In this document: in pieces, positions 45,113 to 62,925 of the stretch | Position numbering within the stretch: position 1 is the first letter of the stretch | How the letters are laid out: the number at the start of each line of letters is the position of its first letter | Source of the DNA: Pseudooceanicola nitratireducens | GTDB lineage: Bacteria; Pseudomonadota; Alphaproteobacteria; Rhodobacterales; Rhodobacteraceae | Direction of reading: 5' to 3' | Assembly: GCF_900109195.1 (NCBI RefSeq) | Contig: NZ_FNZG01000001.1 | Location: 682,001 to 746,000, forward strand | Length of the DNA stretch: 64,000 bases | The notes under the pieces: model-generated | Databases searched by the model: none | The model's input: only the letters and a program-made list of their open reading frames with translations | Told to the model about the DNA's origin: nothing | Translations under genes and position numbers: made by a program

Positions 45113-45128
45113 TTTCACAAGTGTGAAA
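45113..45128. promoter_or_regulatory. IclR operator, copy 1
   Basis: TTTCACAAGTGTGAAA is a perfect palindrome (TTTCACA, AG, TGTGAAA). It lies 21 bases before iclR and about 160 before the SDR gene. The same 16 bases, inverted, occur at 51630-51645, so a common protein, most simply the IclR regulator, should bind both. Confidence 0.8.
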
Positions 45129-45286
45129 CTCGACCTCACATATGGATTATTTCTAGGCATGTCCGGGGGCGCGTGACAACCTTTCCACAAGGCTGGCACA
45201 GGGTGAGGAGACCCGAGGCCCGGCGTCAGGGATCCCGATTGCGGACCCTGGCGCAGGGGTGCCGGCGCAAAGGGAAGGGGGCTGTC

Positions 45287-46057
45287 GTGACAACCATCGT
45301 CAAGGACAGATTTGCAGGGCGTGTCGCCCTGGTGACCGGCGGCGGTCAGGGCATCGGCCGGGCCATCGCGGAACATCTGGCAGCAGAGGGCGCGCGCGTC
45401 GGCGTGCTGGACCTGAACGCCGAGCTGGCGGAAACCACCGCCCAGGCGCTGCGCGACAAGGGGGGCGAGGCCATCGCCCTGACCGCCAACGCCGGCAAGC
45501 GGGACGAGGTCTTTGCCGCCGTGCAAAAACTGCGCGAGGCCTTCGGGCCGGTGACCGTCCTGATCAACAACGCCATGTTCAACCGCTATGGCCCGCTGGA
45601 GGACCAGACCGAGAAGACCATCAGCCTGATGATCGACGTCGGCCTGAAGGGCGTGATCTGGGGCTATCAGGCAGTGCTGGCCGACATGCGTGGCGCGGGC
45701 GGCGGGTCGATCGTGAACATCGCCTCTCCGGCGGCGGTGATCGCGATGAAACATGGTATCATGTACTCGGCCGTAAAGGCCGCCGTGGCGGCCGCAACCC
45801 GGTCGGGCGCGGCGGAATTCGGCCCCGACAACATCCGCGTCAATGCCGTGGCCCCGGGGCCGACCCAGACCGACGGGGCCAACCTTGTCGTGACGGAAGA
45901 GGCCTGGGAACGCCGCCGACAGCGCGTGCCGATCGGCCGCCTTGGCCAACCCCAGGATTCGGCGGCCGCCGCCGTGTTTCTTGCGTCGGAAGACGCGTCC
46001 TTCATCACGGGCGACATGCTGTTCGTGGATGGGGGCATCACTTACGCGTTCTCTTGA
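45287..46057 (+). CDS. Short-chain dehydrogenase/reductase (first gene of IclR operon 1)
   Basis: This 256-residue SDR has TGGGQGIGRAIAEHLAAEG, LINNAMFNRYG, Ser in IVNIASPAAVIAMKHG, and the Tyr-Lys pair in MYSAVKAAV. It ends with FITGDMLFVDGGITYAFS. Asp in VGVLDLNAE favours NAD(H). GTG 45287 follows AAGGGAAGGGGG. It probably interconverts an alcohol and a ketone at the head of the pathway that also has a Baeyer-Villiger enzyme. The next gene is the ABC binding protein. Confidence 0.92.
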   Translation: MTTIVKDRFAGRVALVTGGGQGIGRAIAEHLAAEGARVGVLDLNAELAETTAQALRDKGGEAIALTANAGKRDEVFAAVQKLREAFGPVTVLINNAMFNRYGPLEDQTEKTISLMIDVGLKGVIWGYQAVLADMRGAGGGSIVNIASPAAVIAMKHGIMYSAVKAAVAAATRSGAAEFGPDNIRVNAVAPGPTQTDGANLVVTEEAWERRRQRVPIGRLGQPQDSAAAAVFLASEDASFITGDMLFVDGGITYAFS

Positions 46058-46110
46058 TCGCGTTTGCATACCGGCGGGAGGACGCCGGTTCTTTTCTCAG
46101 GGAGGAAGAC

Positions 46111-47334
46111 ATGAACTATCAGAAAAAACTAAAGGGAATGGCCATCCTGCTGGCCGGTACAGCCCTGGTCGCAACGCCGGCCGCCGCCGAATTTTCCGAT
46201 GACGTCATCCGGATCGGCATCATGAACGACCAGTCCGGCCCCTATGCGGACAACTGCGGCACCGGTTCCGTCACCTCGGCCAAGCTTGCGGTCGAAGACC
46301 ACGGCGGCGCCATCAACGGCACCCCGATCGAGATCGTCATCGCCGACGACCAGAACAAGCCCGACATCGGTGTCAGCCAGGCCCTGAAGTGGGTCGAGGA
46401 AGACGGCGTGGACGCGATCATCGGCTGTTCGGCCTCGTCCATCGCGCTGGCCGTGGCGGACATCATGGGCGACAAGAACGTGCCCTACCTGGTGGCCGGC
46501 AGCGCGACCACCGAGACGACGAACTCCAAGTGCAACGCCATGACCACCAACTGGGCCTACAACACCTATACGCTGGCCAAAGGGTCGGTTCAGGCGCAGC
46601 TCGATAAGGGGCTGGACAAGTGGTACTTCATCACCGTCGACTACACGTTCGGCAAGGCCTGGCAGGAAGACGCCACCCGCTTCATCGAAGCCGCCGGAGG
46701 CGAGGTCGTCGGATCCACCCTGCACCCGCTTGGGGCCACCGACTTCTCGTCCCAGCTGCTGCAGGCCCAGGCCTCGGGCGCGACGGTGATCGGCATTGCC
46801 AACGCCGGTGCCGACCTTGCCAACGTGCTGAAACAGGCGCGGGAATTCGGCATCATGGACGCCGGTCAGACGCTGGCCCCGCTTGGCCTTCAGGTGAACA
46901 ACGTGCATGCCATCGGCCTTGAGGCCACCGGCGGCCTGGTTGTGTCCGCCCCCGCCTACTGGGCGATGAACGACGAAACCAAGGCCTTCACCGCACGCTA
47001 CGGTGCGGCCTTCGACGACCGCACGCCGAACGAAAGCCAGCTGGTGACCTATTCCGCAGTCAACCACCTGCTGAAGGCGATGGAAGCCTCGGGCACCGAC
47101 GGCGGCGAAGCGGTCATGGCCTCGATGCGGGAACTGCCGATCACCGACATGATCTCGGACAACGTGATGATCCGCGAAGACGGCGTCATCAACCGTCCGA
47201 TGCTGAAGGTGCAGGTGAAATCCGCCGACGCCACCTCGGGCGGCTGGGACTATTACGACGTCCAGGGCTGGATCGATGCGGGCGACGTCTGGCCGCCGCT
47301 GGCCGACAGCGTCTGCCCCATGGTCAAGATGTGA
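46111..47334 (+). CDS. ABC transporter substrate-binding protein, branched-chain amino acid (Liv) family
   Basis: This 407-residue periplasmic protein has signal MAILLAGTALVATPAAA. It begins DVIRIGIMNDQSGPYADNCGTGSVTSAKLAVEDHGGAINGTPIEIVIADDQNKPDIG and includes DYTFGKAWQEDATRFIEAAGGEVV and PNESQLVTYSAVNHLLKAM. These are Peripla_BP_6 features used for many hydrophobic or aromatic ligands, not only amino acids. ATG 46111 follows AGGGAGGAAG. No livGFHM lies beside it, but a complete set without its own binding protein is at 56678-59990. Confidence 0.93.
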   Translation: MNYQKKLKGMAILLAGTALVATPAAAEFSDDVIRIGIMNDQSGPYADNCGTGSVTSAKLAVEDHGGAINGTPIEIVIADDQNKPDIGVSQALKWVEEDGVDAIIGCSASSIALAVADIMGDKNVPYLVAGSATTETTNSKCNAMTTNWAYNTYTLAKGSVQAQLDKGLDKWYFITVDYTFGKAWQEDATRFIEAAGGEVVGSTLHPLGATDFSSQLLQAQASGATVIGIANAGADLANVLKQAREFGIMDAGQTLAPLGLQVNNVHAIGLEATGGLVVSAPAYWAMNDETKAFTARYGAAFDDRTPNESQLVTYSAVNHLLKAMEASGTDGGEAVMASMRELPITDMISDNVMIREDGVINRPMLKVQVKSADATSGGWDYYDVQGWIDAGDVWPPLADSVCPMVKM

Positions 47335-47348
47335 TCTGAATTCACGAC

Positions 47349-47376
47349 GGGGCGGCCTCTTTTGGGGGGCCGTCCC
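47349..47376 (+). terminator. Intercistronic hairpin after the Liv-type binding-protein gene
   Basis: GGGGCGGCCTC and GGGGCCGTCCC can pair with two G-T wobbles around a T-rich loop. It is the third hairpin in the window directly after a binding-protein gene (also 20209 and 39322), consistent with differential expression of the binding protein. Confidence 0.55.
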
Positions 47377-47416
47377 AGCCAGGCCCGCAAGGGCCGACTG
47401 CGATCAGGGGGGCGCG

Positions 47417-48307
47417 ATGACCAAGCATATCAAGACCGTGACGGCCAGCCGCATTTCCGAGGCACCGGACCTTCTGGGCGAAAGCCCGGTCTGGGACGAT
47501 CAGCTGGGGCGGCTGTACTGGGTCGACAGCATGTCGAAGAAGATCCGGTACTATCATCCCGCCGATCACAGCCACGGCGACATCGACGTGCCGCAGATCA
47601 TCGGATCGGTTGGCCTTGGTGCGCCGGGCACGCTGGTCGCCGGCCTGGCCGACGGCATCTATTCCATCGAGATCGAGACGGGCGCCGCCACGCCGCTCTA
47701 CCGGTTGGATCCGCCCAATGACCGCGTGCGCTTCAACGATGGCAAGGTCGACCGCCAGGGCCGCTTTGTCTGTGGCGGCATGGGCATCTATGCCGAACCC
47801 GTGGGTGAGGTCCTGCGCGTCGCCCCCGATGGCACCGCCGAGGTTCTGGCCAACGGGCTGCGGATCACCAATTCCATCTGTTTCAGCCCCGATGGCGACA
47901 CCTTCTACATGGCCGACAGCCTGGACAAGCTGGTGCGCGCCTACAGCTATGGCACCGGGGAAGAGGCATTGTCGGAACCGCGCATGCTGGTCGACACGAA
48001 ACCCTATGCCTCGGGCCCCGATGGCGCGACCGTGGACAGCGAAGGCTGCATCTGGATCGCCCTGGTGCAGACCGGCCAGATCGCCCGCTTCACCCCGGAC
48101 GGGGACCTGGACGCGCTGATCGAGGCCCCGACCGACATGCCGACCTGCATGTGTTTCGGCGGGCCGGATCTGAAGACCCTCTATGTCACCTCGATCAAGG
48201 ACAGCGGCTCGGGCCGGGCGATTTCGCGTCACCCGCTTGGCGGCCACCTGTTTGCCATCGAAGGCCTGGGCGTCACCGGATTGCCCGAACCGCGATTTGC
48301 CAGCTGA
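47417..48307 (+). CDS. SMP-30/gluconolactonase family protein (lactone hydrolase candidate)
   Basis: This 296-residue six-bladed propeller protein has LLGESPVWDDQLGRLYWVDSMSKKIRYY (metal Glu in GESP), RVRFNDGKVDRQGRFVCGGM, GLRITNSICFSPDGDTFYMADS (metal Asn) and GPDGATVDSEGCIWIAL (catalytic Asp). All key residues of the lactonase family are present. In an operon regulated together with a Baeyer-Villiger monooxygenase, it is the natural candidate to open the lactone. ATG 47417 follows AGGGGGGCG. Confidence 0.92.
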   Translation: MTKHIKTVTASRISEAPDLLGESPVWDDQLGRLYWVDSMSKKIRYYHPADHSHGDIDVPQIIGSVGLGAPGTLVAGLADGIYSIEIETGAATPLYRLDPPNDRVRFNDGKVDRQGRFVCGGMGIYAEPVGEVLRVAPDGTAEVLANGLRITNSICFSPDGDTFYMADSLDKLVRAYSYGTGEEALSEPRMLVDTKPYASGPDGATVDSEGCIWIALVQTGQIARFTPDGDLDALIEAPTDMPTCMCFGGPDLKTLYVTSIKDSGSGRAISRHPLGGHLFAIEGLGVTGLPEPRFAS

Positions 48308-48431: not shown

Positions 48432-50549
48432 ATGACCCGCACCCTCTCTGCACTTCTGGCCCCCTCCAGCCTGGCGCTTGTCGGGGCGTCGGACGATGCC
48501 ACCCGCATCGGCGGCCGTCCGCTGCGCTACCTGCGCGAGGCCGGGTTTGCGGGCCGGATCTATCCGGTGAACCCCAAGCGCGACAGCGTGCAGGGCTTGC
48601 CCGCCTATGCCGATATCGCCGCACTCCCCGAGGTGCCCGACACCGCGATCCTTGCCCTTCCGGCCTCGGCCACGCTTTCCGCGGTTCAGGCCTGTGCCGA
48701 CCGGGGCGTGCCCACGGCGACAATCTTTTCCGCCGGTTTCGCCGAAATGGGCGAGGAGGGGCGCGCGCTTCAGTCCCGCATCCTTGCCACCGCGCGCGAA
48801 GCCGGGCTGCGCCTGCTGGGGCCGAACTGCCTGGGCGTCTTCAACCCGGCGGCGCAGTATTACGGCACCTTCTCGGTGATCCTGGACGGACAGCTGATGC
48901 AGCCCGGCCCGGTCGGCGTGGTGTCGCAAAGCGGGGCCTATGGATCGCACCTGGCGCATCTGGCACGCAAGCGCGGGCTGGGGATCTCGAAATGGGTGAC
49001 CACCGGGAACGAGGCCGACATCGACTTGTCCGAGGCGCTGTCCTGGCTGGTCGAGGACCCGCAGACCCGGGTCATCATGGCCTATGCCGAAGGCGTGCAG
49101 GACCGCGACCGGTTCATCGCCGCGCTGGAAGGTGCGCGCCAGGCGGGCAAGCCAGTGGTCTTCATGAAGACCGGGCGGTCCAGCGTCGGGGCCGAGGCCG
49201 CGGCCAGCCATACCGCGGCCCTCGCCGGGTCGGACGCCGTGTTCGACGCGGTGCTGCGTCAGTACGGGGCCTATCGCGCCGCCACCACCGCCGAACAGAT
49301 CGACGTCGCCTATGCCTGCGCCCGGTCCATCGACAGCGCCGGCGGCCTGCCATCGGGCAACCGCATCGGCATCTTCACCATGTCCGGCGGCTTTGGCATT
49401 CAGCTGGCCGATGACAGCGAAGCGGCGGGGCTGGATGTCTCGCCCATGCCCGAACCCGCCCAGGCCGAGCTGCTGAAGGCGTTGCCCTTTGCCGCCCCGC
49501 GCAACCCCGTTGACGCCACCGCCCAGGCGGTTACCGACATGGGCCTGCTGACCCAATCCGTGCGCGCCATGCTGGAACAGGGGGGCTATGACATCTTTAC
49601 CGCCATCTTGGGCACCGGACCGGGCAGCCCGACATTCTCGGCCAAGCTGCGCGCCGCACTTCAGGCCGCGCAACCAGAGCAGGGCAGCAAGATCCTGCGC
49701 GCCCTCACCATGTCCGCCCCGGATGACGCCGTGCGCGCCTATGAAGACGACGGGTTCCTCGTCTACGAAGACGGCAGCGCCCTGGCCAATGCCTTGGGCG
49801 CGTTGGTGCAATTCTCGTCTGCCTTTGGGCGGCCCGCGACGGATCCCGCCACGCTGAGCATGGACCAACAGGACCTGCCCCAAGGCCCCGTCAGCGAAGC
49901 GGGGGCCAAACGCCTGCTGGCCCGTGCCGGCATTCCCTTCCCGCCGGAACATCTGGTCACCGATGCCGCCGGGGCCGCGCAGGCCGCCCGCGACCTGGGC
50001 GGGCCGGTGGTGATCAAGATCGCCTCGCCCGACATCGCGCACAAGACCGAGGTCGGCGGCGTCGCGGTCAATATCCCCGCCGATCAGGCCGAGGCTCGCG
50101 CCGCCCGCATGCTGGCCGACATCGCACAGGCCGCGCCCAAGGCCCGGATCGAAGGGCTGCTGGTCGCCCCCATGGCCCCCGAGGGCGTCGAGACCATCAT
50201 CGGCGTCAGCCGCGATCCGGTACTGGGCCCGGTGGTGATGTTCGGCCTGGGCGGCGTCTTCGTCGAGGTGCTGCGCGACGTGACCTTCCGTGCCGCCCCC
50301 TTCGACCGCGCCGAGGCGCACCGCATGATCCGCGACATCCGCGGCTATCCCATGCTGGAAGGCGTCCGGGGCGCAGGGCGCGCGGATGTCGAGGCGCTGG
50401 CCCAGCTGCTGTCGGACCTGTCGCGCTTTGCCTTTGCGCATCGCGATCAGGTGGCGGGCATCGACCTGAACCCCGTGCGCGTCCTGCCCGAAGGGCAGGG
50501 GGTGCTGGCGCTGGACGCGCTGATCGACTTCGGAAAGGACCCCGCATGA
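48432..50549 (+). CDS. Acyl-CoA synthetase, NDP-forming (ACD family)
   Basis: This 705-residue protein has an N-terminal CoA-binding domain (PSSLALVGASDDATRIGGRPLRYL, LRLLGPNCLGVFNPAAQYYGTF), a middle succinyl-CoA ligase-like part (VVSQSGAYGSHLAHLARKRG, SHTAALAGSDAVFDAVLRQYG) and a C-terminal ATP-grasp domain (LLARAGIPFPPEHLV, VVIKIASPDIAHKTEVGGVAVNI, GIDLNPVRVLPEG). It interconverts acyl-CoA + ADP + Pi and acid + CoA + ATP, and could activate an acid or recover ATP. ATG 48432 is used; a GTG one codon earlier is possible. It overlaps the SnoaL gene by ATGA. Confidence 0.92.
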   Translation: MTRTLSALLAPSSLALVGASDDATRIGGRPLRYLREAGFAGRIYPVNPKRDSVQGLPAYADIAALPEVPDTAILALPASATLSAVQACADRGVPTATIFSAGFAEMGEEGRALQSRILATAREAGLRLLGPNCLGVFNPAAQYYGTFSVILDGQLMQPGPVGVVSQSGAYGSHLAHLARKRGLGISKWVTTGNEADIDLSEALSWLVEDPQTRVIMAYAEGVQDRDRFIAALEGARQAGKPVVFMKTGRSSVGAEAAASHTAALAGSDAVFDAVLRQYGAYRAATTAEQIDVAYACARSIDSAGGLPSGNRIGIFTMSGGFGIQLADDSEAAGLDVSPMPEPAQAELLKALPFAAPRNPVDATAQAVTDMGLLTQSVRAMLEQGGYDIFTAILGTGPGSPTFSAKLRAALQAAQPEQGSKILRALTMSAPDDAVRAYEDDGFLVYEDGSALANALGALVQFSSAFGRPATDPATLSMDQQDLPQGPVSEAGAKRLLARAGIPFPPEHLVTDAAGAAQAARDLGGPVVIKIASPDIAHKTEVGGVAVNIPADQAEARAARMLADIAQAAPKARIEGLLVAPMAPEGVETIIGVSRDPVLGPVVMFGLGGVFVEVLRDVTFRAAPFDRAEAHRMIRDIRGYPMLEGVRGAGRADVEALAQLLSDLSRFAFAHRDQVAGIDLNPVRVLPEGQGVLALDALIDFGKDPA

Positions 50550-51097
50550 CCCAAGCCGTTGACATCACGATCGACACCCTGCTGGATCGCGAAAAGATCC
50601 GTGACTGCCTGTATCGCTACGCCCGGGGCGTCGACCGCGCGGACGAAGCGGCGCTGAGATCCGCCTATTGGCCCGACGCCAACGATTGCCACGGGTCCTA
50701 CAACGGCCCGATCGACGGGTTCGTCGACTGGGCGCGCAAGGTCTGGGCGGCCAAGGCGCGCAACGTGCACCTGATCAGCAATATCCTGATCGAATTCGAC
50801 GGCTCCGCCCCGCAGCCGGTGCTGGCGCAGGTGGAAAGCTATTTCCTGGCCCTGCAACGCGGCCCCGCCCCCACGGGCGGTGAGGCGCAGGTCCTGCTGG
50901 CGGGCCGCTATTGCGACCGGTTCGAAAAGCGCGGCACCGAATGGCGCATCGCCGACCGGGTGGTGATCTACGACTGGATGGATCCGCAGACCGCGCCTGA
51001 CCAGGACGAGGCCACGCGCTTTGGCCCCCGCCAGCCGATCGGCGCGGCCTTTCCCGACGACGTGATTTACCGCTGGACACAAGGGGGACCTGCATGA
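50546..51097 (+). CDS. SnoaL-like (NTF2-fold) protein
   Basis: This 183-residue protein has the SnoaL_4 start LLDREKIRDCLYRYARGVDRADEAALRSAYWPDANDCHG. The conserved Asp in GVDRAD and a His two turns later, plus HLISNILIEFDG and LLAGRYCDRFEKRGTEWRIADRVVIYDWMD, fit a small enzyme fold used for dehydratase, isomerase, dehydrochlorinase or hydroxylase-like steps. It overlaps both neighbours (ATGA each side), so it is part of the pathway. The reaction is not known. Confidence 0.9.
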   Translation: MTQAVDITIDTLLDREKIRDCLYRYARGVDRADEAALRSAYWPDANDCHGSYNGPIDGFVDWARKVWAAKARNVHLISNILIEFDGSAPQPVLAQVESYFLALQRGPAPTGGEAQVLLAGRYCDRFEKRGTEWRIADRVVIYDWMDPQTAPDQDEATRFGPRQPIGAAFPDDVIYRWTQGGPA

Positions 51098-51618
51098 CCG
51101 ACACAACGATCAGCATCGCGGCCCCGTCGCCCGCCTCGCAGCGCTTTGTCGATGAATACAAGACCGCCATGCGGCATGTCGCGTCGCAGGTCGCGATTGT
51201 GACCTATGGCCGGGGCGAGGATCGGGGCGGCATCACCTGCACCGCGATCTGTTCCGCCTCGACCGAGCCGCCGGCGCTGGTGGTCTGCATCAACCGCAGC
51301 TCTCCGGCGCGCGACGGCATCGCCCGCGCCGGGGCCTTTGCCGTGAACCACCTGACCGACGAGCAGTCCGAGATCGCCCGCGCCTTTTCGCAATCCTCGC
51401 AGGTCGCCGCCCCCTTCGATCTGGGCCAGTGGTCCACCGGATCCGAGGGCGCGCCGATCCTGGCCCAGGCGACGGCGAATTTCGAATGCCGGATCGATCA
51501 GTGCATCGAGATCGGCGGCCACACGATGTTCATCGGCTGGGTCGTGGCGGTTCAGACGGCTCCGGGCAGCACGTTGCTGTATCGGGACGGGTTTTTCAGA
51601 CGGCTGGCGCAGGAGTGA
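51094..51618 (+). CDS. Flavin reductase, HpaC-like
   Basis: This 174-residue flavin reductase domain starts YKTAMRHVASQVAIVTYGRGEDRGGITCTAICSASTEPPALVVCINRSSPARDGIARAGAFAVNHL and ends MFIGWVVAVQTAPGSTLLYRDGFFRRL. Such proteins use NAD(P)H to supply reduced FMN/FAD to a two-component monooxygenase. No such oxygenase is visible nearby; the Baeyer-Villiger enzyme at 60018 is self-sufficient. The partner is therefore elsewhere, or the protein does something else. It is the last gene of IclR operon 1. Confidence 0.9.
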   Translation: MTDTTISIAAPSPASQRFVDEYKTAMRHVASQVAIVTYGRGEDRGGITCTAICSASTEPPALVVCINRSSPARDGIARAGAFAVNHLTDEQSEIARAFSQSSQVAAPFDLGQWSTGSEGAPILAQATANFECRIDQCIEIGGHTMFIGWVVAVQTAPGSTLLYRDGFFRRLAQE

Positions 51619-51629: not shown

Positions 51630-51645
51630 TTTCACACTTGTGAAA
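51630..51645. promoter_or_regulatory. IclR operator, copy 2
   Basis: TTTCACACTTGTGAAA is the exact reverse complement of the site beside iclR. It lies 95 bases before the acyl-CoA ligase start and 11 bases after the flavin reductase stop, splitting the rightward genes into two operons under the same regulator. Confidence 0.8.
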
Positions 51646-55491: not shown

Positions 55492-56657
55492 GCACACACC
55501 CCGACTACAACGCGATGAGTGACGCGGAATTTCGCAAGATCTTCCGCGACTGGGTCGATGTCAATTGCCCGCAGCACCTGCGCTTCATGCGCAAGCAGCG
55601 CCCCACCTTTGACGAGGTGGCCGACTGGTATCACGCGCTGAACGACAAGGGCTGGCTGTCGCCGGTCTGGCCGGTGGACTACGGCGGCATGGGGCTCGAT
55701 GCGGCGAAACACATCGTCTATGTCGAGGAATGGGCGCGCCTTGGCTGCCCGCGCATCCCCGACCACGGCATCGGGCTGACCGGGCCTCTGCTGATCGAAC
55801 ACGGCTCCGACGAACAGAAGGCCGAATTCCTGCCCAAGATCCTGACCGGCGAACATGTCTGGTGTCAGGGCTATTCCGAACCGGGCGCGGGGTCGGACCT
55901 TGCGTCGCTGCGCACCCAGGCGGTGCGCGACGGCGATGATTTCATCGTCAACGGGCAGAAGATCTGGACCACGCTGGCCCATTGCGCCAACTGGATCCTG
56001 CTGCTGGTGCGCACGACGAAATCCGACAAGCGCCAGCATGGCATCACCGTGCTGCTGGTGGAACTGTCCTCGCCCGGGGTGCTGGTCCGCCCGATCAAGA
56101 ACCTGCGCGAAGAGGAAGACTTCTGCGAGGTCTTCTTTGAAAACGTCCGCGTCCCCGCCCGCAATGTGGTCGGAGAGGTCGACGTGGGCTGGGCGCTGGC
56201 GAAATCGGTTCTGGGTCACGAACGCATCTTCCTGGGCGCGCCCTCGCGGCCCGAATATGCGCTGACCCGGCTGGAGATTCTGGCCCGCGATCGCGGGGCC
56301 TTTGAAGATGCCGCCTTCCGGTCGCGCTATGCCAGGCTGCGGCTGGATCTTTACGACCTCGGCTCGGCCTTTGAACGCTTTGCCAAGGTGCTGCGCGAAG
56401 GTGGCACGCTTGGGGCGGATGTCTCGGTGCTGAAGATCTTCTGCAGCGAGCTGTACCAGCGCATCACCGAAGAAATGCTGACCGTCGCGGGCGAAGAGGC
56501 CCGGTACTACGACGATCTGCCCGTGGGCGACGCGGGCGGGGCGATCGACGTCATGAACCTGTACCTCGATAGCCGGGCCCCGGCGATCTTTGGCGGGTCT
56601 AACGAAATCCAGCGCGGCATCCTTGCAAAAGCGGTGCTGGGCTTGCCGTCCAGGTAA
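55488..56657 (+). CDS. Acyl-CoA dehydrogenase, larger catalytic-type subunit
   Basis: This 389-residue acyl-CoA dehydrogenase has WYHALNDKGWLSPVWPVDYGGMGLDAAKHIVYVEEWAR, GYSEPGAGSDLASLRTQAVRDGDDFIVNGQKIWTTLAHCANW, and the C-terminal SRAPAIFGGSNEIQRGILAKAVLGLP. The FGGSNEIQ end is typical of FadE17/26/29-like enzymes, which act on bulky acyl-CoAs and often pair with a second dehydrogenase. It should introduce the alpha-beta double bond in the CoA ester. It is followed after 20 bases by livG. Confidence 0.93.
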   Translation: MSTHPDYNAMSDAEFRKIFRDWVDVNCPQHLRFMRKQRPTFDEVADWYHALNDKGWLSPVWPVDYGGMGLDAAKHIVYVEEWARLGCPRIPDHGIGLTGPLLIEHGSDEQKAEFLPKILTGEHVWCQGYSEPGAGSDLASLRTQAVRDGDDFIVNGQKIWTTLAHCANWILLLVRTTKSDKRQHGITVLLVELSSPGVLVRPIKNLREEEDFCEVFFENVRVPARNVVGEVDVGWALAKSVLGHERIFLGAPSRPEYALTRLEILARDRGAFEDAAFRSRYARLRLDLYDLGSAFERFAKVLREGGTLGADVSVLKIFCSELYQRITEEMLTVAGEEARYYDDLPVGDAGGAIDVMNLYLDSRAPAIFGGSNEIQRGILAKAVLGLPSR

Positions 56658-56677: not shown

Positions 56678-57454
56678 GTGGAGAACTCGACTGCAACTGC
56701 CGGCGACTACGCGCTTGAGGCGCGGGGGCTGAGCAAATCCTTCGGATCGTTCTATGCGGTGAAGGATGTGGACCTGAAGGTCAGGCGGGGCACGATCCAC
56801 GCGCTGATCGGTCCGAACGGGGCGGGCAAGACCACCTGCTTCAACCTGTTGACCAAGACCCTGACACCGACCGCCGGTCAGGTGATCTATGAAGGGCGCG
56901 ACATCACCGGGCTGCGCACCGCGCAGGTCGCCAAGCTGGGGCTGGTGCGCAGCTTCCAGATCTCGGCCACCTTCCCGCATCTGACCTGCCTGGAAAACGT
57001 CCGGGTGGCGCTGCAGTCGAACCATGGCAAGTCGTTCCGCTTCTGGTCGCCGCTTTCGGCGATCCGGTCGCTGGACCCGCGCGCGGTGGAGCTGCTGGAG
57101 CAGGTCGGCCTGGCCGATGCCGCGCATCTTCAGGCGACGGAACTGTCCTACGGCAAGAAACGTGCGCTGGAAATTGCCACCACCCTGGCGCTGGATCCCA
57201 AGGTCATGCTTCTGGACGAACCCACGGCCGGCATGGGCCACGAGGATCTGGAACCGATCACCGAACTGATCCGCCAGGTCTCGGCCGGGCGCACGATCCT
57301 GATCGTCGAACACAACCTCTCGGTCGTGTCGAGCCTGTGCGAAAGGATCACCGTCCTGCAACACGGAGAGCTTCTGACCGAAGGCACCTATGACGAGGTG
57401 TCCAACAACGAAGACGTCATCACGGCCTACATGGGAGGTGTCGATGCCCTCTGA
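56678..57454 (+). CDS. livG: Liv-type ABC transporter ATP-binding protein LivG
   Basis: This 258-residue ATPase has LSKSFGSFYAVKDVDLKVRRGTIHALIGPNGAGKTTCFNLLTKTL (Walker A GPNGAGKT), LSYGKKRALEIATTLALDPKVMLLDEPTAGMGHEDL and the LivG-type C-terminus GTYDEVSNNEDVITAYMG. It starts at GTG 56678 with GGGGGGAGAG upstream. It overlaps livF by 11 bases. It works with LivF, LivH, LivM and the binding protein of operon 1. Confidence 0.94.
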   Translation: MENSTATAGDYALEARGLSKSFGSFYAVKDVDLKVRRGTIHALIGPNGAGKTTCFNLLTKTLTPTAGQVIYEGRDITGLRTAQVAKLGLVRSFQISATFPHLTCLENVRVALQSNHGKSFRFWSPLSAIRSLDPRAVELLEQVGLADAAHLQATELSYGKKRALEIATTLALDPKVMLLDEPTAGMGHEDLEPITELIRQVSAGRTILIVEHNLSVVSSLCERITVLQHGELLTEGTYDEVSNNEDVITAYMGGVDAL

Positions 57455-58157
57455 TCCGCAACCCATCCTGAAGGTCGAGAACCTCGAAGCCTGGTACGGC
57501 GAAAGCAAGGCCCTGCACGGCATGAATTTCGACGTCCGCGAGGGCGAGCTGGTGACCCTGATCGGGCGCAACGGGGCGGGCAAGACCTCGACCCTGCGGT
57601 CGATCATGGGGATCGTCGGCAATCGCACCGGGTCGATCCAGTTCCGCGGCAAGGAACTGATCCGCAAGCGCACCTATCAGATCGCGCAGGAGGGCATCGC
57701 CTATTGCCCCGAAGAGCGGGCGATCTTTGCCAGCCTCTCGGTTGCCGAGAACATGACCCTGCCGCCGGTGCTGCGCCCCGGGGGCCTGTCCGACAAGGAC
57801 CTGTTCGAGGCCTTCCCCAACCTGCACGCCCGCCGCAAAAGCGGCGGCAGCAAGCTGTCGGGCGGGGAACAGCAGATGCTGGCCATTGCCCGCATCCTGC
57901 GCACCGGATCGCGTTTCATCCTGCTGGACGAACCAAGCGAGGGCCTGGCCCCCGTGATCGTCAAGCAGATCGGAACCCAGATCCTGCGCCTGAAGGAACA
58001 GGGGTTCACCATCGTGCTGGTGGAACAGAACCTGCAATTCGCCCGCCTTGTCGCCGACCGCCATGTGGTCGTCGAGAACGGTCAAGTCGTCGACACGCTG
58101 ACGCCCGAGGATCTCTCGGCCGATCTGGACCGTGTCAAAACCTATCTGGGGGTGTGA
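57444..58157 (+). CDS. livF: Liv-type ABC transporter ATP-binding protein LivF
   Basis: This 237-residue ATPase has LKVENLEAWYGESKALHGMNFDVREGELVTLIGRNGAGKTSTLRSIMG, YCPEERAIFASLSVAENM and LSGGEQQMLAIARILRTGSRFILLDEPSEGLAPVIV. It ends with DRVKTYLGV. ATG 57444 follows GGGAGGTG. These are the standard LivF marks, with the usual length. Confidence 0.94.
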   Translation: MPSDPQPILKVENLEAWYGESKALHGMNFDVREGELVTLIGRNGAGKTSTLRSIMGIVGNRTGSIQFRGKELIRKRTYQIAQEGIAYCPEERAIFASLSVAENMTLPPVLRPGGLSDKDLFEAFPNLHARRKSGGSKLSGGEQQMLAIARILRTGSRFILLDEPSEGLAPVIVKQIGTQILRLKEQGFTIVLVEQNLQFARLVADRHVVVENGQVVDTLTPEDLSADLDRVKTYLGV

Positions 58158-58161: not shown

Positions 58162-59046
58162 ATGTTTGACGGAATCTCGACCCAACTACTGTTCGGCCAG
58201 GTGCTGATCGGCCTGATCAACGGGTCCTTCTACGCGATGCTGTCGCTTGGCCTGGCGATCATCTTCGGCCTGATGTCGGTGGTGAACTTCGCCCATGGCG
58301 CGCAATACATGCTGGGGGCCTTCATCGCCTGGGGGCTGCTGAACTACCTTGGCGTGCCCTACTGGGGGGCGCTGTTCATCGCGCCGGTGGTCGTCGGGGC
58401 CTTTGGCCTGGTGATGGAGCGGCTGATCCTGAGGCCGATCCAGAACCTCGACCACCTCTATTCCCTGCTGGCCACCTTTGCCGCCGTGCTGATCATCGAA
58501 GGGCTGGTGCGGCAGGAATTCGGATCCACCGGTCTGCCCTACAACTCGCCCCTGCCGGGCGGGGTGAACCTGGGCTTCATGTTCATGCCCTGGTACCGGC
58601 TCTGGGTGGTGGTCTTCTCGATCGTGGTCTGCTTCGGGACCTATATCCTGATCGAACACACCAAGCTGGGTGCCTATCTGCGCGCCGCCAATGAACGCCC
58701 CGAGATCGTCGAGAGCTTTGGCATCAACGTGCCGCGCATGATCAGCCTGACCTATGCCTTCGGCGTCGGCCTGGCGGGGCTGGGCGGCGTGCTGGCGGCA
58801 CCGATCTATCAGGTCTCGCCCTCGATGGGATCGAACCTGATGATCGTCATCTTCGCCGTGGTCGTGATCGGCGGCATGGGGTCGATCCTGGGGGCCATCC
58901 TGACCGGCTATCTCATCGGCATCGTCGAGGGGCTGACCAAGGTCTTCTACCCCGAGGCCGCGAACCTGGTGATCTTCGTCATCATGATCTTCGCCCTGAT
59001 CCTGCGACCGAACGGCCTGTTCTCGGGCAAGGAGGGATACAAATGA
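58162..59046 (+). CDS. livH: Liv-type ABC transporter permease LivH
   Basis: This 294-residue membrane protein has LLFGQVLIGLINGSFYAMLSLGLAIIFGLMSVVNFAHGAQYMLGAF at the start, typical of LivH, and the conserved loop LGAYLRAANERPEIVESFGINVPRMISLTYAFGVGLAGLGGVLAAP. About eight membrane segments are visible. ATG 58162 lies 4 bases after the livF stop, and the end overlaps livM (ATGA). Confidence 0.94.
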   Translation: MFDGISTQLLFGQVLIGLINGSFYAMLSLGLAIIFGLMSVVNFAHGAQYMLGAFIAWGLLNYLGVPYWGALFIAPVVVGAFGLVMERLILRPIQNLDHLYSLLATFAAVLIIEGLVRQEFGSTGLPYNSPLPGGVNLGFMFMPWYRLWVVVFSIVVCFGTYILIEHTKLGAYLRAANERPEIVESFGINVPRMISLTYAFGVGLAGLGGVLAAPIYQVSPSMGSNLMIVIFAVVVIGGMGSILGAILTGYLIGIVEGLTKVFYPEAANLVIFVIMIFALILRPNGLFSGKEGYK

Positions 59047-59990
59047 CCCGCACTCTCTGGCTTGGCCTGCTTCTGGTCGCGCTGATTGCCGCGCCCCTGG
59101 CCATCTACCCTGTGCTGCTGATGTCGATCCTGTGTTTCGTCATCTTCGCGTCCTCGTTCAACCTGCTGCTGGGCTATGCCGGGCTGCTGTGCTTCGGCCA
59201 TGCGATGTTCTTCGGCACGGCCGCCTATGTGGCGGGCTACCTGCTGAAGACCTACGGCGTCTCGGTCGAGGTCGCGCTGATCGCGGGCACCCTGCTGTCG
59301 GCCGCGATGGGATATGTCGTCGGCATCATCTCGGTCCGGCGGTCGGGCATCCAGTTCGCCATGATCACCCTGGCGATTTCGCAGTTCGTCTACTTCCTGT
59401 TGCTGCAGGCCGAGTTCACGGGCGGCGAGGACGGCATGCAGCGCATCCCGCGCTCGACCCTCTTCGGGATCTTCGACGTCAGCGACCATATGGCGTTCTA
59501 CTACGTGACGCTTACCGTTGCCGTGCTGGCCGTGGCCTTCTTCTACCGGGTGGTGCATTCGCCCTTCGGGGAAATCCTGCGCGCCATCCGCGACAACGAA
59601 CCCCGCGTGGAATCCCTGGGCTTCCGGCCCGAACGCTACAAGATCCTGGCGATGACCCTGTCCGCGGGTCTGGCGGGGCTGGCGGGCGCACTGAAGGCCA
59701 TGGTCTTCCAGTTCGCCACGCTGACGGATGTCTCCTGGCCAATCTCGGCCGAGGTGATCCTGATGACCCTGCTGGGCGGCCTTGGCACCCTGACCGGCCC
59801 TATGCTGGGCGCGGGCATCGTCATCCTGATGAACGACGAACTGGCACAGTTCGGGGAATGGGCGCTGATTGCCCAGGGCGTGATCCTGCTGCTTGTCATC
59901 ATCTTTTTCCGGCGTGGTGTCGTCGGTGAACTTTCCGCGCTGTGGCGTCGTCTGCGCCCCAGCCCTGACCAAAATCAGGATCGGGGCTGA
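59043..59990 (+). CDS. livM: Liv-type ABC transporter permease LivM
   Basis: This 315-residue permease has IFASSFNLLLGYAGLLCFGHAMFFGTAAYVAGYLLKTYG and the family loop SPFGEILRAIRDNEPRVESLGFRPERYKILAMTLSAGLAGLAGALKA, then EVILMTLLGGLGTLTGPMLGAGIVILMNDEL. It completes the uptake complex. Placing a transporter between beta-oxidation genes and the Baeyer-Villiger gene argues that it imports the pathway substrate, not leucine. Confidence 0.94.
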   Translation: MTRTLWLGLLLVALIAAPLAIYPVLLMSILCFVIFASSFNLLLGYAGLLCFGHAMFFGTAAYVAGYLLKTYGVSVEVALIAGTLLSAAMGYVVGIISVRRSGIQFAMITLAISQFVYFLLLQAEFTGGEDGMQRIPRSTLFGIFDVSDHMAFYYVTLTVAVLAVAFFYRVVHSPFGEILRAIRDNEPRVESLGFRPERYKILAMTLSAGLAGLAGALKAMVFQFATLTDVSWPISAEVILMTLLGGLGTLTGPMLGAGIVILMNDELAQFGEWALIAQGVILLLVIIFFRRGVVGELSALWRRLRPSPDQNQDRG

Positions 59991-60017
59991 CCCGGTCGAC
60001 ACATGAGGGAGGAACCC

Positions 60018-61649
60018 ATGTCGAAATCCAACTCCACCCAGGCCGAACGGGTCGACGTCTTGGTCGTCGGTGCCGGCTTCGGCGGCATGTACGCCGTCTA
60101 CAAGTTCCGCGAGATGGGCAAGAAGGTCGTCGGGATCGAGGCCGGCAGCAACGTCGGCGGCGTCTGGTACTGGAACCGCTATCCCGGGGCCCGTTGCGAC
60201 CTGATGAGCGTCGATTACAGTTACGGCTTCTCGCCCGAGATCGAACAGGAATGGACCTGGTCGGAACAATTCGCCGCCCAGCCGGAAATCCTGGCCTATG
60301 CGAATTTCGTGGCCGACCGGCTGGATCTGCGCAAGGACTTCCGCTTTGACACCCGCGTGACCTCGGCCATCTGGGACGAAGAGGCCAAGCTGTGGCGCGC
60401 CACCACCGATACGGGCGCGGTGCTGGAAGCCCCCTATGCCATCATGTCCACCGGCCCGCTGTCGATCCCCAAGGATCCCGACATCCCCGGCATCGACCGC
60501 TTCAAGGGTGAACTTTATCGCGCCCAGAAATGGCCGCACCATGACGTGGATTTCGCCGGCAAGCGGGTTGGTGTGATCGGCACTGGATCCACCGGCATCC
60601 AGATCATCCAGGAGGTCGGGCGCAAGGCCGGAGAGCTGTTCGTCTTCCAGCGCACCCCCAGCTTCACCCTGCCGATGCGCAACCGCGAGATCACGCCGGA
60701 CTATGCCGCCGAGATGAAGAAACACTATCGCCAGATGCGCGCGGCGATGAAGATGAACCCTACGGGCGGCACGCGGCCCGTGACCTCTCGGCCCTATTTC
60801 TCGCTTCCGCCGGATCAGCGGATCGAGGCGATGGAACAGGCCTGGATCAACGGCGGCCATACCTTCCTGGGCACCTTCGCGGACCTCATGGTCAACGAAG
60901 AGGCGAACGAGGCCGTGGCGGATTTCGTCCGCGACAAGATCGGCCAGATCGTCGAAGACCCGGTGGCGGCCGAGGCGCTGAAGCCGCGCGGCTACCCGAT
61001 CTTCGCCCGCCGTCCCTGCCTGGATACGGAGTATTACGAGACCTACAACCTGCCGAACGTGCATCTGGTCGACTGCAAGAAGGACGCCATCGTCGAGATC
61101 ACCGAAAAGGGCATCCGCACCGAAAGCGGCGAGACCGAACTGGACATGCTGATCTTTGCCACCGGCTATGACGCGCTGACCGGCGCGCTGCTGGCCTTTG
61201 ACGTGGTGGGCCGCAACGGGCTGCGCCTGAAGGACAAGTGGAAGGACGGCCCGGTTTCGCATCTTGGCATCACCATGACGGGCTTTCCCAACCTCTTTGC
61301 CACCACCGGCCCGAACGGCCCGGCGGCATTGGCCAATATCATCACCATCAGTGAAAACGACGTCGACTGGATCGCCGATCTGATCACCCATATGGAGGCC
61401 AAGGGCCTGAGCGCGGTGGAACCCACTCAAGAGACCGAGGATGCCTGGATGACCCGCGTGGCCGAACTGGCCGCGCCCTCGCTGATCCGCAAGGCCAACA
61501 CCTGGTGGGTCGGATCCAACGTCAAGGGCAAGCCGACCGGGTTGACGATGTTCGTGGGCGGCTTTGCCAAGTACCGCGAAGCCTGCGAGGCCGTCGCGGC
61601 ATCAGGTTACGAAGGCTATGCCTTCGACCGGGTCAGCGAACCCGCCTGA
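60018..61649 (+). CDS. Baeyer-Villiger-type flavin monooxygenase
   Basis: This 543-residue class B flavoprotein has VLVVGAGFGGMYAVYKFREMGKKVVGIEAGSNVGGVWYWNRYPGARCD (FAD) and RVGVIGTGSTGIQIIQEVG (NADPH). The fingerprint, usually FxGxxxHxxxWP, reads FKGELYRAQKWP at 162-173, with Arg in place of His. The active-site Arg of the FARRPCLD segment, LVDCKKDAI and FATGYDALTGALLAFDV are kept. It inserts oxygen next to a ketone to make an ester or lactone, using NADPH. ATG 60018 follows AGGGAGGAA. Confidence 0.92.
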   Translation: MSKSNSTQAERVDVLVVGAGFGGMYAVYKFREMGKKVVGIEAGSNVGGVWYWNRYPGARCDLMSVDYSYGFSPEIEQEWTWSEQFAAQPEILAYANFVADRLDLRKDFRFDTRVTSAIWDEEAKLWRATTDTGAVLEAPYAIMSTGPLSIPKDPDIPGIDRFKGELYRAQKWPHHDVDFAGKRVGVIGTGSTGIQIIQEVGRKAGELFVFQRTPSFTLPMRNREITPDYAAEMKKHYRQMRAAMKMNPTGGTRPVTSRPYFSLPPDQRIEAMEQAWINGGHTFLGTFADLMVNEEANEAVADFVRDKIGQIVEDPVAAEALKPRGYPIFARRPCLDTEYYETYNLPNVHLVDCKKDAIVEITEKGIRTESGETELDMLIFATGYDALTGALLAFDVVGRNGLRLKDKWKDGPVSHLGITMTGFPNLFATTGPNGPAALANIITISENDVDWIADLITHMEAKGLSAVEPTQETEDAWMTRVAELAAPSLIRKANTWWVGSNVKGKPTGLTMFVGGFAKYREACEAVAASGYEGYAFDRVSEPA

Positions 61650-61719
61650 ATCCGCAGCCAGGACCGGACCCGGCCCGCGCAGGGCCGGGTCCCCCATCAG
61701 ACCCAACCCGGGGGTGCCC

Positions 61720-62925
61720 ATGGCCGATCTTTTCACTCCGCTGGTGCTGGGCGGGATCACCTGTCCCAACCGCATCCAGGTCTCGCCCATGTGCCAGTAT
61801 TCCGCCGTGGACGGCATCGCGCAGGATTGGCACCTGATCCATCTGGGCGGGCTGATGATGTCCGGGGCCGGGCTTGTGGTGGCCGAGGCCACGGGCGTCG
61901 AAGCCGCAGGCCGGATCTCTCATGGCTGCCTGGTGTTGGAGACGGACGCACAGGAACAGGCGCTGGCCGATCTGGTCGCGCGGCTGCGCCCGCTGTCGGA
62001 CGCAGGCATCGGCATCCAGCTGGGCCATGCGGGGCGGCGCGCCTCGGCCCGGTCGATCCGGGATCGCGGCAAGGGCGAAAGCCTACCGCCCGAGGAAGGG
62101 GCCTGGCAGACCTACGCCCCCTCGGCGCTGCCCTATAACGACCAATGGGCCACCCCCGCCGAGATGACCGAGGACGACATCATCCGCATCACCCGGGCCT
62201 TTGCCCAGGCCACACGGCGGGCGGTGCGCGCGGGCTTCGACCTGGTGGAATGCCACGCCGCCCATGGCTATCTGCTGCATCAGTTCCTGTCGCCCCGCAC
62301 CAACCGGCGCAATGACGCCTGGGGCGGTACGCTGGAGAACCGCATGCGCTTTCCCCTGGCGGTGGTGCAGGCGATGCGCGACGCGCTGCCCGCCGACCGG
62401 GCCCTGGGCGTGCGCGTCAACAGCACCGACTGGCACCCTCAGGGCGCAACGCTGGACGACGCGGTCCCCTTCGTGCGCGCGCTGAAGGACCTGGGTGTGG
62501 ATTACGTCACCCTGTCGGCCGGGAACCTGGTGCCCGACGCGGTGATCCCCAAGGCCACGCCGGGCCATCAGGTCGGCTTTGCCGAACGGATCCGGCAAGA
62601 GACGGGGATGACCGTGGTGGCGGTCGGCATGATCTCGGACCCCGTGCAGGCCGATGCGGTGGTGCGCGAGGGGCGGGCCGACATGGTGGCGATCGGCCGG
62701 GCAATGCTGGACAACCCCAGATGGGGCTGGCACGCGGCGGCGCGGCTGGGGCACGATGTGCCATATCCGCCGCAATACCTGCGCGCGCGGCCCAACAACT
62801 GGACGGATTTTCAACGCATCCATCCCGGGGCACAGCCGGTTGTGTCCACGCAGCAGGCGGATCGCCCGTCAGGATCGACCTGGGATCGGCCCGAGACTGA
62901 CAAGCCCGCCGCCCAGCCCAGCTGA
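61720..62925 (+). CDS. NADH:flavin oxidoreductase / ene-reductase, YqjM-like OYE
   Basis: This 401-residue old yellow enzyme starts LFTPLVLGGITCPNRIQVSPMCQYSAVDGIAQDWHLIHLGGL, with the Cys in SPMCQYS that marks the YqjM class. GIQLGHAGRRAS, ECHAAHGYLLHQFLSPRTNRRNDAWGGTLENR (His-x-x-His substrate pair) and GMISDPVQADAVVREGRADMVAIGRAMLDNPRW follow. It should reduce the C=C bond of alpha,beta-unsaturated ketones. A ~45-residue C-terminal extension (from RIHPGAQPV) is rich in Pro, Ser and Gln and looks disordered. It is the last gene of IclR operon 2. Confidence 0.93.
   Translation: MADLFTPLVLGGITCPNRIQVSPMCQYSAVDGIAQDWHLIHLGGLMMSGAGLVVAEATGVEAAGRISHGCLVLETDAQEQALADLVARLRPLSDAGIGIQLGHAGRRASARSIRDRGKGESLPPEEGAWQTYAPSALPYNDQWATPAEMTEDDIIRITRAFAQATRRAVRAGFDLVECHAAHGYLLHQFLSPRTNRRNDAWGGTLENRMRFPLAVVQAMRDALPADRALGVRVNSTDWHPQGATLDDAVPFVRALKDLGVDYVTLSAGNLVPDAVIPKATPGHQVGFAERIRQETGMTVVAVGMISDPVQADAVVREGRADMVAIGRAMLDNPRWGWHAAARLGHDVPYPPQYLRARPNNWTDFQRIHPGAQPVVSTQQADRPSGSTWDRPETDKPAAQPS

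What the first reader, a model, noticed from the sequence alone, without database searches (positions are those of the whole stretch)
45113..62925. IclR-controlled two-operon locus with a probable new cyclic ketone or terpenoid-like catabolic pathway
Thirteen enzyme and transport genes in two adjacent operons combine a Liv-type uptake system, SDR, YqjM-like ene-reductase, Baeyer-Villiger monooxygenase, SMP-30 lactonase, AMP- and NDP-forming CoA ligases, two acyl-CoA dehydrogenases, a crotonase without the first Glu, an SnoaL protein and a flavin reductase. Seen: gene families and order. Known: OYE plus BVMO plus lactonase chemistry turns an enone into a hydroxy acid. Inferred: the set imports and degrades a bulky cyclic enone, ketone or terpenoid, ending in beta-oxidation. 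I cannot match the whole set to a described pathway.
Basis: partly seen in the sequence, partly recalled or inferred. Interest (0 to 1): 0.85.

Follow-up and report, generated by a model that had tools for sequence, protein, structure and literature searches.

The report
Uncharacterised cyclic-ketone degradation regulon in marine bacterium
A marine bacterium carries a two-operon set of uptake and breakdown genes, apparently switched together by one repressor and found in varying form in other soil, plant and sea bacteria, that probably imports a ring-shaped acid or ketone and cuts its ring open; the compound is still unknown.

Summary
In detail: iclR and two same-strand operons with 16 (not 13) uptake and catabolic genes. 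New here: (1) The palindrome TTTCACA-NN-TGTGAAA occurs without mismatch only twice in the 4.06 Mb genome, once before each operon. (2) In 51 loci with a BVMO of at least 60% identity, 35 of 36 such sites (up to 2 mismatches) lie upstream of BVMO, ligase, SDR/IclR, OYE or other members; 198 shuffled palindromes averaged 0.14. BVMO and OYE thus probably belong to one IclR regulon in Alphaproteobacteria. (3) At least 4 partners stand near 38 of 51 BVMOs, against 0 of 24 paralogue loci. (4) The BVMO keeps D66/R337/W501 but has Arg for the fingerprint His in 41 of 52. (5) The binding protein lacks the LivK Glu226 equivalent, as do all 23 relatives aligned. (6) The genome holds a parallel module with a luciferase-like monooxygenase and TTT transporter. 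The chemistry (ketone to lactone to hydroxy acid to beta-oxidation) is inferred; the substrate is unknown. A charged alicyclic oxo-acid is favoured over a neutral terpenoid. No paper listed in my searches describes the set.

The parts
44313..45092 (-). IclR-family regulator, divergent from operon 1
   Evidence: HTH_IclR and IclR_C over cut-off; best NCBIfam PcaR/PcaU family, 66 bits, cut-off 285
45113..45128 (.). operator 1, TTTCACAAGTGTGAAA, perfect 7-2-7 palindrome between iclR and SDR
   Evidence: mismatch-free only here and at operator 2 in the whole genome
45287..46057 (+). SDR oxidoreductase (operon 1)
   Evidence: adh_short_C2; PRK07231 subfamily 233 bits over cut-off 215
46111..47334 (+). 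ABC substrate-binding protein, Liv type, lacking the LivK Glu226 equivalent
   Evidence: Peripla_BP_6 326 bits; alignment with E. coli LivK/LivJ; model pLDDT 87.9, nearest folds 3i09, 3n0w
47417..48307 (+). SMP-30 family protein, predicted lactonase
   Evidence: SGL 262 bits; E22, N107, N152, D202 conserved
48432..50549 (+). NDP-forming acyl-CoA ligase, alpha-beta fusion
   Evidence: CoA_binding_2, Succ_CoA_lig, ATP-grasp_5
50546..51097 (+). SnoaL_4 / NTF2-like protein with conserved D30 and H75
   Evidence: SnoaL_4; aligned to LinA; D30 and H75 among positions conserved in at least 90% of 14 relatives
51094..51618 (+). flavin reductase, end of operon 1; no obvious partner monooxygenase in the operon
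   Evidence: Flavin_Reduct
51630..51645 (.). operator 2, TTTCACACTTGTGAAA, before operon 2
   Evidence: centre about 103 bp before the ligase start, and 106-114 bp at 8 of the 10 ligase-associated sites in relatives
51741..53372 (+). AMP-forming acyl-CoA ligase, DmdB-like
   Evidence: AMP-binding; PRK07008 768 bits, cut-off 822; PDB 6ihk 592 bits
53518..54669 (+). acyl-CoA dehydrogenase, small-subunit type
   Evidence: PimD model 142 bits, cut-off 653; PDB 6wy8_A 96 bits
54706..55491 (+). crotonase with only the second catalytic Glu (E136)
   Evidence: PRK06495 398 bits over cut-off 296
55488..56657 (+). acyl-CoA dehydrogenase, large-subunit type, putative base E245
   Evidence: PimC model 280 bits, cut-off 624; aligned with 4x28 chain A, position 247; E245 in 19 of 19 relatives
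56678..57454 (+). ABC ATPase, LivG type
57444..58157 (+). ABC ATPase, LivF type
58162..59046 (+). ABC permease, LivH type
59043..59990 (+). ABC permease, LivM type
60003..61649 (+). type I Baeyer-Villiger monooxygenase, PAMO/STMO-like, fingerprint FKGELYRAQKWP (Arg173 for His)
   Evidence: PDB 1w4x 582 bits; residues; supported 52-row clade
61720..62925 (+). OYE / YqjM-XenA class ene-reductase, last gene of operon 2
   Evidence: Oxidored_FMN 216 bits; PDB 8pun 362 bits; C25 in 10 of 11, H179 and H182 in 11 of 11 relatives

Best explanation
This is one catabolic regulon, controlled by the divergent IclR protein through a 7-2-7 palindromic operator in front of each operon. Most likely mechanism: the SBP and LivHMGF import a polar, probably carboxylated, ring compound; the DmdB-like ligase makes its CoA ester; the paired acyl-CoA dehydrogenase, the single-Glu crotonase and SDRs shorten or oxidise the acyl part; the OYE, where present, saturates a ring enone; the type I BVMO turns the ring ketone into a lactone; the SMP-30 protein opens the lactone; the NDP-forming ligase activates the new carboxylate, and a dicarboxylyl-CoA-type product enters beta-oxidation. 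Shown here: gene content, operator sequences, conserved co-occurrence, conserved catalytic residues. Inferred: every reaction, their order, repression by IclR, and the substrate class (oxo-alicyclic acid such as a jasmonate/oxylipin-like or terpenoid-derived acid about 0.4; aryl-ketone plant phenolic about 0.2; neutral terpenoid ketone about 0.15; other about 0.25).
For: Operator without mismatch only twice in the genome, one before each operon. In 51 relatives 35 of 36 sites lie within 350 bp upstream of BVMO (17), AMP ligase (10), IclR (7), SDR (6), OYE (5), ACADs (2) or SnoaL (1), a site between divergent genes counting for both; 198 shuffled palindromes gave mean 0.14 and maximum 3. At least 4 partners near 38 of 51 BVMOs, 0 of 24 controls. 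D66, R337, W501 in the window and 51 of 51 relatives; SMP-30 E22/N107/N152/D202 conserved; ACADl E245 in 19 of 19 relatives. SBP without the amino-binding Glu in the window and 23 of 23 relatives, with hydroxybenzoate- and coumarate-bound SBPs among its fold neighbours. On a Sulfitobacter plasmid the parallel module stands with genes annotated 3-oxoadipyl-CoA thiolase, CoA transferase and 3-hydroxyacyl-CoA dehydrogenase, which fits a dicarboxylyl-CoA product.
Against: No biochemical or expression data. OYE is near only 11 of 51 BVMOs, IclR near 16 and flavin reductase near 6 (many contigs are short). The palindrome (up to 2 mismatches) was found in 21 of 51 loci and in none of the 20 I class as betaproteobacterial by record title; a crude search for another shared operator there gave nothing usable. 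No sigma-70-like promoter was seen in the region. SMP-30 proteins hydrolyse several lactone types (recalled), so the link to the BVMO product is by context only. Arg for His in the BVMO fingerprint could mean altered activity. Amino-acid-binding proteins 3td9 (rank 6) and 4xfk (rank 12) are among the SBP's fold neighbours. The flavin reductase has no obvious partner in the window.
Confidence: 0.68

Rival explanations
1. The regulon degrades an aromatic ketone or plant phenolic (for example an aryl alkyl ketone or chromanone): the PAMO-like BVMO makes an aryl ester or benzo-lactone, the SMP-30 protein hydrolyses it, and the CoA enzymes treat an arylpropanoid side chain.
For: Closest solved BVMO is phenylacetone monooxygenase; hydroxybenzoate- and coumarate-binding SBPs are among the fold neighbours of the SBP; several carriers belong to plant-associated genera (association recalled).
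Against: None of the 17 genes is a ring-cleaving or ring-hydroxylating dioxygenase; the large ACAD resembles the pimeloyl-CoA and 4x28 subunits, which fits aliphatic or alicyclic acyl-CoAs; PAMO accepts many ketones (recalled).
Confidence: 0.2
2. Neutral monoterpenoid route like that described for carveol/dihydrocarvone or menthol (SDR, ene-reductase, BVMO, lactonase, CoA ligase), with the ABC system importing something unrelated.
For: Same predicted enzyme types as recalled for that pathway; all present in one regulon.
Against: The ABC transporter genes lie inside the operons and recur beside the BVMO in 19 to 23 of 51 loci (SBP 23, LivG 22, LivH 22, LivF 21, LivM 19); neutral terpenoids should need no such importer; OYE was not found near 40 of 51 BVMOs.
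Confidence: 0.12
3. Two unrelated functions lie side by side: a fatty/branched acid uptake and beta-oxidation operon (operon 2 without BVMO/OYE) and a broad detoxification set (BVMO, OYE, SDR).
For: BVMO and OYE are the last genes of operon 2; in several relatives they stand apart from the Liv/ACAD operon.
Against: Where BVMO or OYE stands apart it often carries the same operator (17 sites before BVMO, 5 before OYE).
Confidence: 0.08

Closest known systems
Phenylacetone / steroid monooxygenase (type I BVMO)
   Same: 582 and 542 bits to 1w4x and 4ap3; first fingerprint and residues D66, R337, W501 kept
   Different: second fingerprint has Arg for His in 41 of 52 clade members including the window (His 6, Leu 4, Tyr 1); lies in a conserved catabolic regulon
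Carveol/dihydrocarvone and cyclohexanol/cyclopentanol pathways (recalled, not tested)
   Same: alcohol dehydrogenase, ene-reductase (carveol only), BVMO, lactonase, then acid activation
   Different: lactonase is of the SMP-30 type, two CoA ligases, paired ACAD, ABC importer, SnoaL protein, no aldehyde dehydrogenase among the 17 genes
9,10-anthraquinone pathway of Sphingobium sp. AntQ-1 (PMC9836352, passages seen)
   Same: a luciferase-like BVMO and a type I BVMO near each other on one replicon, each with a hydrolase
   Different: the main text never uses acyl-CoA dehydrogenase, enoyl-CoA or SMP-30 (term counts zero); aromatic substrate
Isoflavone ifc cluster of Variovorax (PMC11069340, outline and passages seen)
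   Same: catabolic cluster shared by Variovorax, Bradyrhizobium and other Proteobacteria
   Different: the passages name a group A flavin monooxygenase and cupins, not a BVMO
Pimeloyl-CoA dehydrogenase PimCD and ChsE4-ChsE5-type paired ACADs (the name ChsE4 for 4x28 is recalled)
   Same: large/small subunit pair; E245 aligns with position 247 of 4x28 chain A
   Different: below the PimC and PimD cut-offs

Membership tests
Type I Baeyer-Villiger monooxygenase | fingerprint [A/G]GxWxxxx[F/Y]P[G/M]xxxD | tested here: met
   present in window and all 51 relatives
Type I Baeyer-Villiger monooxygenase | fingerprint FxGxxxHxxxW[P/D] | tested here: not met
   window reads FKGELYRAQKWP; Arg in 40 of 51 relatives, His in 6; motif as given in PMC9836352 and PMC10682829 (passages)
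Type I Baeyer-Villiger monooxygenase | catalytic Asp66, Arg337, Trp501 (PAMO numbering; roles recalled) | tested here: met
   window and 51 of 51 relatives
Type I Baeyer-Villiger monooxygenase | converts a ketone to an ester or lactone | not testable with these tools
   needs enzyme assay
Branched-chain amino acid (Liv) uptake system | SBP, two permeases, two ATPases | tested here: met
   SBP is in operon 1, the rest in operon 2
Branched-chain amino acid (Liv) uptake system | amino-binding Glu226 of LivK (role recalled) | tested here: not met
   Leu in window, Leu 13 or Phe 10 in 23 relatives; PRK15404 model 69 bits, cut-off 477
PimCD pimeloyl-CoA dehydrogenase | NCBIfam PimC and PimD cut-offs | tested here: not met
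   280 of 624 and 142 of 653 bits
DmdB 3-(methylthio)propionyl-CoA ligase | PRK07008 cut-off | tested here: not met
   768 of 822 bits
SMP-30 lactonase | metal/substrate residues E, N, N, D (recalled from human SMP30) | tested here: met
   N107, N152, D202 in 19 of 19 relatives; E22 in 18, gap in one
YqjM/XenA class ene-reductase | Cys25-type residue and H-x-x-H (recalled) | tested here: met
   C25 in 10 of 11, H179 and H182 in 11 of 11 relatives
IclR regulon | operator-like site shared by both transcription units | tested here: met
   binding itself not tested
Carveol/dihydrocarvone degradation | growth on carveol and its alpha/beta-hydrolase lactonase (recalled) | not tested
   no growth test possible; none of the 17 genes matched an alpha/beta hydrolase in the families listed

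The most novel reading that the evidence does not exclude
The window locus (module A, type I BVMO, ABC importer) and a second locus in the same genome (module B, luciferase-like monooxygenase, TTT importer) are two halves or twin versions of one undescribed ring-cleavage system. Both share SMP-30, NDP-ligase, ACAD pair, single-Glu crotonase, SDR, SnoaL and flavin reductase, and the FAD-type BVMO and the luciferase-like enzyme replace each other. In rhizobia the SnoaL - double SDR - luciferase-like core was recruited beside nif genes on symbiotic plasmids, where it would act on a plant ring compound, perhaps a hormone or terpenoid, in nodules.
Probability: 0.22. Interest if true: 0.8.

Novelty: new variant of a known kind. 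Interest (0 to 1): 0.57.

Why it matters
It would give a defined, portable regulon for an unknown ring compound used by both sea and plant-root bacteria, with a testable repressor, a testable binding protein, and a BVMO clade most of whose members break the printed fingerprint, so that a strict motif search would miss them. The link to genes beside nif on rhizobial symbiotic plasmids offers a way into the function of those genes.

Tried and rejected
Isoflavone ifc cluster: rejected, its passages name a group A flavin monooxygenase and cupins. Jasmonate catabolism: no fitting title among those listed (15 of 381 shown, 8 of 8, none found); kept only as a candidate substrate. Searches for a paper on the gene set found none by title and abstract start (20 of 29 shown, 15 of 58, none found, 1 of 1, 9 of 9); the library lacks most subscription journals, and unlisted papers were not seen. 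Betaproteobacterial operator: a crude palindrome search gave only GC-rich noise. A terminator after the BVMO: an 11-bp hairpin is there, without a T run and not unusual for its composition (z -1.24). Promoter scan: no sigma-70-like site; terminator-like sites 12 against 10.3 expected. The pNGR234a stretch 455000-500000 did not contain the nif-side operon I looked for; gene names y4v... are recalled and a search for them found no relevant paper on them apart from one that names CYP127A (4 papers). Co-occurrence of modules A and B by genome profile: all 3 BVMO carriers among 198 family genomes also have the luciferase-like enzyme, which 5 of 198 have, but two of the three (own genome and G006) share a genus; within the genus 3 of 5 BVMO carriers have it, against 5 of 22 genomes, so the link is suggestive only. 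In the class sample 5 of 367 genomes passed the BVMO threshold, but the 4 other than the window's own are 47-49% identical, and only the own genome had the luciferase-like enzyme.


Full report
CHECK OF THE OBSERVATION. The set is 16 genes in two same-strand operons plus the divergent iclR: SDR, SBP, SMP-30, NDP-forming ligase, SnoaL_4, flavin reductase; then AMP ligase, small ACAD, crotonase, large ACAD, LivG, LivF, LivH, LivM, BVMO, OYE. 'Operon' here means same-strand, closely spaced genes; no transcript was seen. Base composition is unremarkable for the window. The genome has 4.06 Mb in 32 contigs. One genome of the same genus, G007, has a contig of the same length (143,479) with the BVMO at the same place as the record of Pseudooceanicola nanhaiensis DSM 18065, so I infer that the window comes from that genus in the sense of the collection.

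ONE REGULON. A perfect palindrome TTTCACA-NN-TGTGAAA stands between iclR and the SDR (45113-45128) and before the AMP ligase (51630-51645). In the whole genome it occurs without mismatch only at these two places; two further places have two mismatches, and the backward control pattern has none. I then took the 75 loci, split them by BVMO identity into 51 (60% or more) and 24 (less), and searched the 51 for the palindrome with up to 2 mismatches. There are 36 sites; 35 lie within 350 bp upstream of a homologue (45% identity or more) of a window gene: BVMO 17, AMP ligase 10, IclR 7, SDR 6, OYE 5, small ACAD 2, SnoaL 1 (a site between divergent genes counts for both). For 198 shuffled palindromes the mean was 0.57 sites in all and 0.14 near such genes; the maximum near such genes was 3. 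The 35 sites fall in 21 of the 51 loci; by record title I class 31 of the 51 as Alphaproteobacteria and 20 as Betaproteobacteria, and all 21 are alpha. Several loci are close relatives, so these are not independent events.

CONSERVED COMPANY. Within about 10 kb of the 51 BVMOs (many contigs are shorter) the partners found, at 40% identity or more (35% for small ACAD and flavin reductase), are: SDR 31, crotonase 25, AMP ligase 24, SMP-30 24, SBP 23, LivG 22, LivH 22, large ACAD 21, LivF 21, SnoaL 19, LivM 19, NDP-ligase 17, IclR 16, small ACAD 16, OYE 11, flavin reductase 6, of 51. In the 24 control loci all are 0 except one SDR; control loci are somewhat shorter (mean 16.3 against 19.9 kb). 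At least 4 partners: 38 of 51 against 0 of 24; 4 of the 51 have none. BVMO carriers include Maritimibacter, Pseudooceanicola, Zhengella, Bradyrhizobium, Microvirga, Mesorhizobium, Rhizobium, Variovorax, Acidovorax, Comamonas, with differing gene order and content. Versions of the set are also on a plasmid of Pseudosulfitobacter pseudonitzschiae and of Variovorax sp. PBL-E5 (identities). It is patchy: 3 of 198 genomes of the family sample and 5 of 22 of the genus have a BVMO at E <= 1e-175; one of the five, G011, shows no run of partner genes in the stretches fetched. This points to horizontal spread.

THE ENZYMES. The BVMO is nearest to phenylacetone and steroid monooxygenase and forms a supported clade of 52 rows (100/100) apart from 19 other BVMO rows; 5 short rows were left out of the tree. 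D66, R337 and W501 (PAMO numbers, roles recalled) are invariant in the window and 51 relatives, while the second fingerprint has Arg173 in the window and 40 of 51 relatives (His 6, Leu 4, Tyr 1); of the 19 rows outside the clade 16 have His. So it would fail the printed motif FxGxxxHxxxW[P/D]. The crotonase lacks the first Glu and keeps the second in all 13 relatives; the large ACAD keeps E245, aligned with position 247 of 4x28 chain A, in 19 of 19; the SMP-30 residues and the OYE His pair are kept. SnoaL aligns with LinA with D30 and H75 at LinA's catalytic Asp and His (roles recalled), both conserved.

THE BINDING PROTEIN. Aligned with E. coli LivK and LivJ (sequence), the window SBP and 23 SBP homologues from the BVMO loci all have Leu or Phe where LivK has Glu226, and Ala, Ser, Gly or Thr where it has Tyr202; Ser79 is kept in all, Thr102 in none (residue roles recalled). 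The model (pLDDT 87.9) is nearest to 3i09 and 3n0w, whose titles name no ligand. Urea- and aromatic-acid-binding proteins rank above E. coli leucine-binding protein (rank 33), but other amino-acid-binding proteins rank high too (3td9 at 6, 4xfk at 12). I read this as a binder of a carboxylate or other polar compound rather than of leucine; it was not measured.

A SECOND, PARALLEL MODULE. Beside module A in P. nanhaiensis, in another genome of the genus (G006) and on the Pseudosulfitobacter plasmid lies module B: luciferase-like monooxygenase with flavin reductase, TetR, SDRs, TctC, crotonase, NDP-ligase, ACADs, TctB, TctA. In the window's own genome it is present about 0.41 Mb away (C19:301-318 kb), with a SnoaL 60% identical to the window's and an SMP-30 gene; it has no site of the IclR type within 2 mismatches. 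The luciferase-like enzyme is in 5 of 198 family genomes, among them all 3 with the BVMO, but the two modules are separable. In Sulfitobacter sp. W074 module B stands with genes annotated CoA transferase, 3-hydroxyacyl-CoA dehydrogenase, ACAD and 3-oxoadipyl-CoA thiolase, which fits a dicarboxylyl-CoA end product. A luciferase-like enzyme has been proposed as a type II BVMO in anthraquinone breakdown (PMC9836352, passages); the enzyme of module B itself matches no curated NCBIfam model over cut-off.

A LINK TO SYMBIOTIC PLASMIDS. The luciferase-like protein has relatives in 109 plasmid records, 102 of them Rhizobium, Sinorhizobium or Mesorhizobium. In the three rhizobial records opened (R. tropici CIAT 899, R. 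gallicum, M. huakuii) the genes are SnoaL (59-62% identical to the window's), a double SDR (54-64% identical to the double SDRs of two BVMO loci, L048 and L053) and the luciferase-like enzyme, close to nif genes, with a cytochrome P450 and ferredoxin in two of the three. In Bradyrhizobium L048 that double SDR lies between SnoaL and BVMO; in Rhizobium L053 it lies between flavin reductase and BVMO. So the place of the FAD-type BVMO is taken by the luciferase-like enzyme in the rhizobial plasmids. Whether that P450 is a CYP127 is not tested; PMC8197338 (passages) lists testosterone hydroxylation for CYP127A3.

HOW IT MOST LIKELY WORKS. Import, CoA activation, partial beta-oxidation, optional enone reduction, Baeyer-Villiger ring expansion, lactone opening, second CoA activation, and beta-oxidation of a diacid-type CoA ester. 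The order is not shown. I favour a charged alicyclic oxo-acid over a neutral terpenoid because the importer is part of the regulon. The exact substrate cannot be had from sequence.

NOVELTY. Each enzyme family is known; the regulon, its operator, the Arg-type BVMO clade and the twin module were not seen in the papers listed by my searches (gene set; jasmonate: 29, 44, 53; BVMO motif: 54; rhizobial gene names: 90; open-access library only, long lists cut). PMC8222616, PMC12239570 and PMC5395668 were seen in listings only.

Noticed in passing
G000:C19:301000-318000 (L134, L135), outside the window: A parallel catabolic module with luciferase-like monooxygenase, flavin reductase, SnoaL, NDP-ligase, ACAD pair, crotonase, SDRs, TTT transporter and SMP-30 in the same genome.
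   Followed up: partly
L137:12570-16056, L138:7717-13089, L140:7470-13053: SnoaL - double SDR - luciferase-like enzyme genes (with P450 and ferredoxin in two of three) close to nif genes on rhizobial plasmids, homologous to parts of the window regulon and its twin.
   Followed up: partly
window 61650-61720: GC-rich hairpin (11 bp stem) between BVMO and OYE without a T run; not unusual for its composition (z -1.24), but it might lower OYE expression or stabilise the transcript.
   Followed up: partly
window 41517-44236: Shikimate dehydrogenase-like gene followed by a 3-dehydroshikimate dehydratase QuiC-like fusion (652 bits, cut-off 1200): perhaps a quinate/shikimate route next door, no evidence that it belongs to the regulon.
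   Followed up: no
window 62977-63993 and on: GMC oxidoreductase of the choline dehydrogenase type on the other strand, cut by the window end.
   Followed up: no
G000:C13:16001-34134 (L124): A second BVMO (42-43% identity) in the same genome near a gene 79% identical to the 3-oxoadipyl-CoA thiolase beside module B in Sulfitobacter W074.
   Followed up: partly
L041:4809-6122, L056:11675-12967, L061:8520-9797: A family of about 430 residues (I recall DUF1254/DUF1214) recurs near the BVMO in three loci.
   Followed up: no
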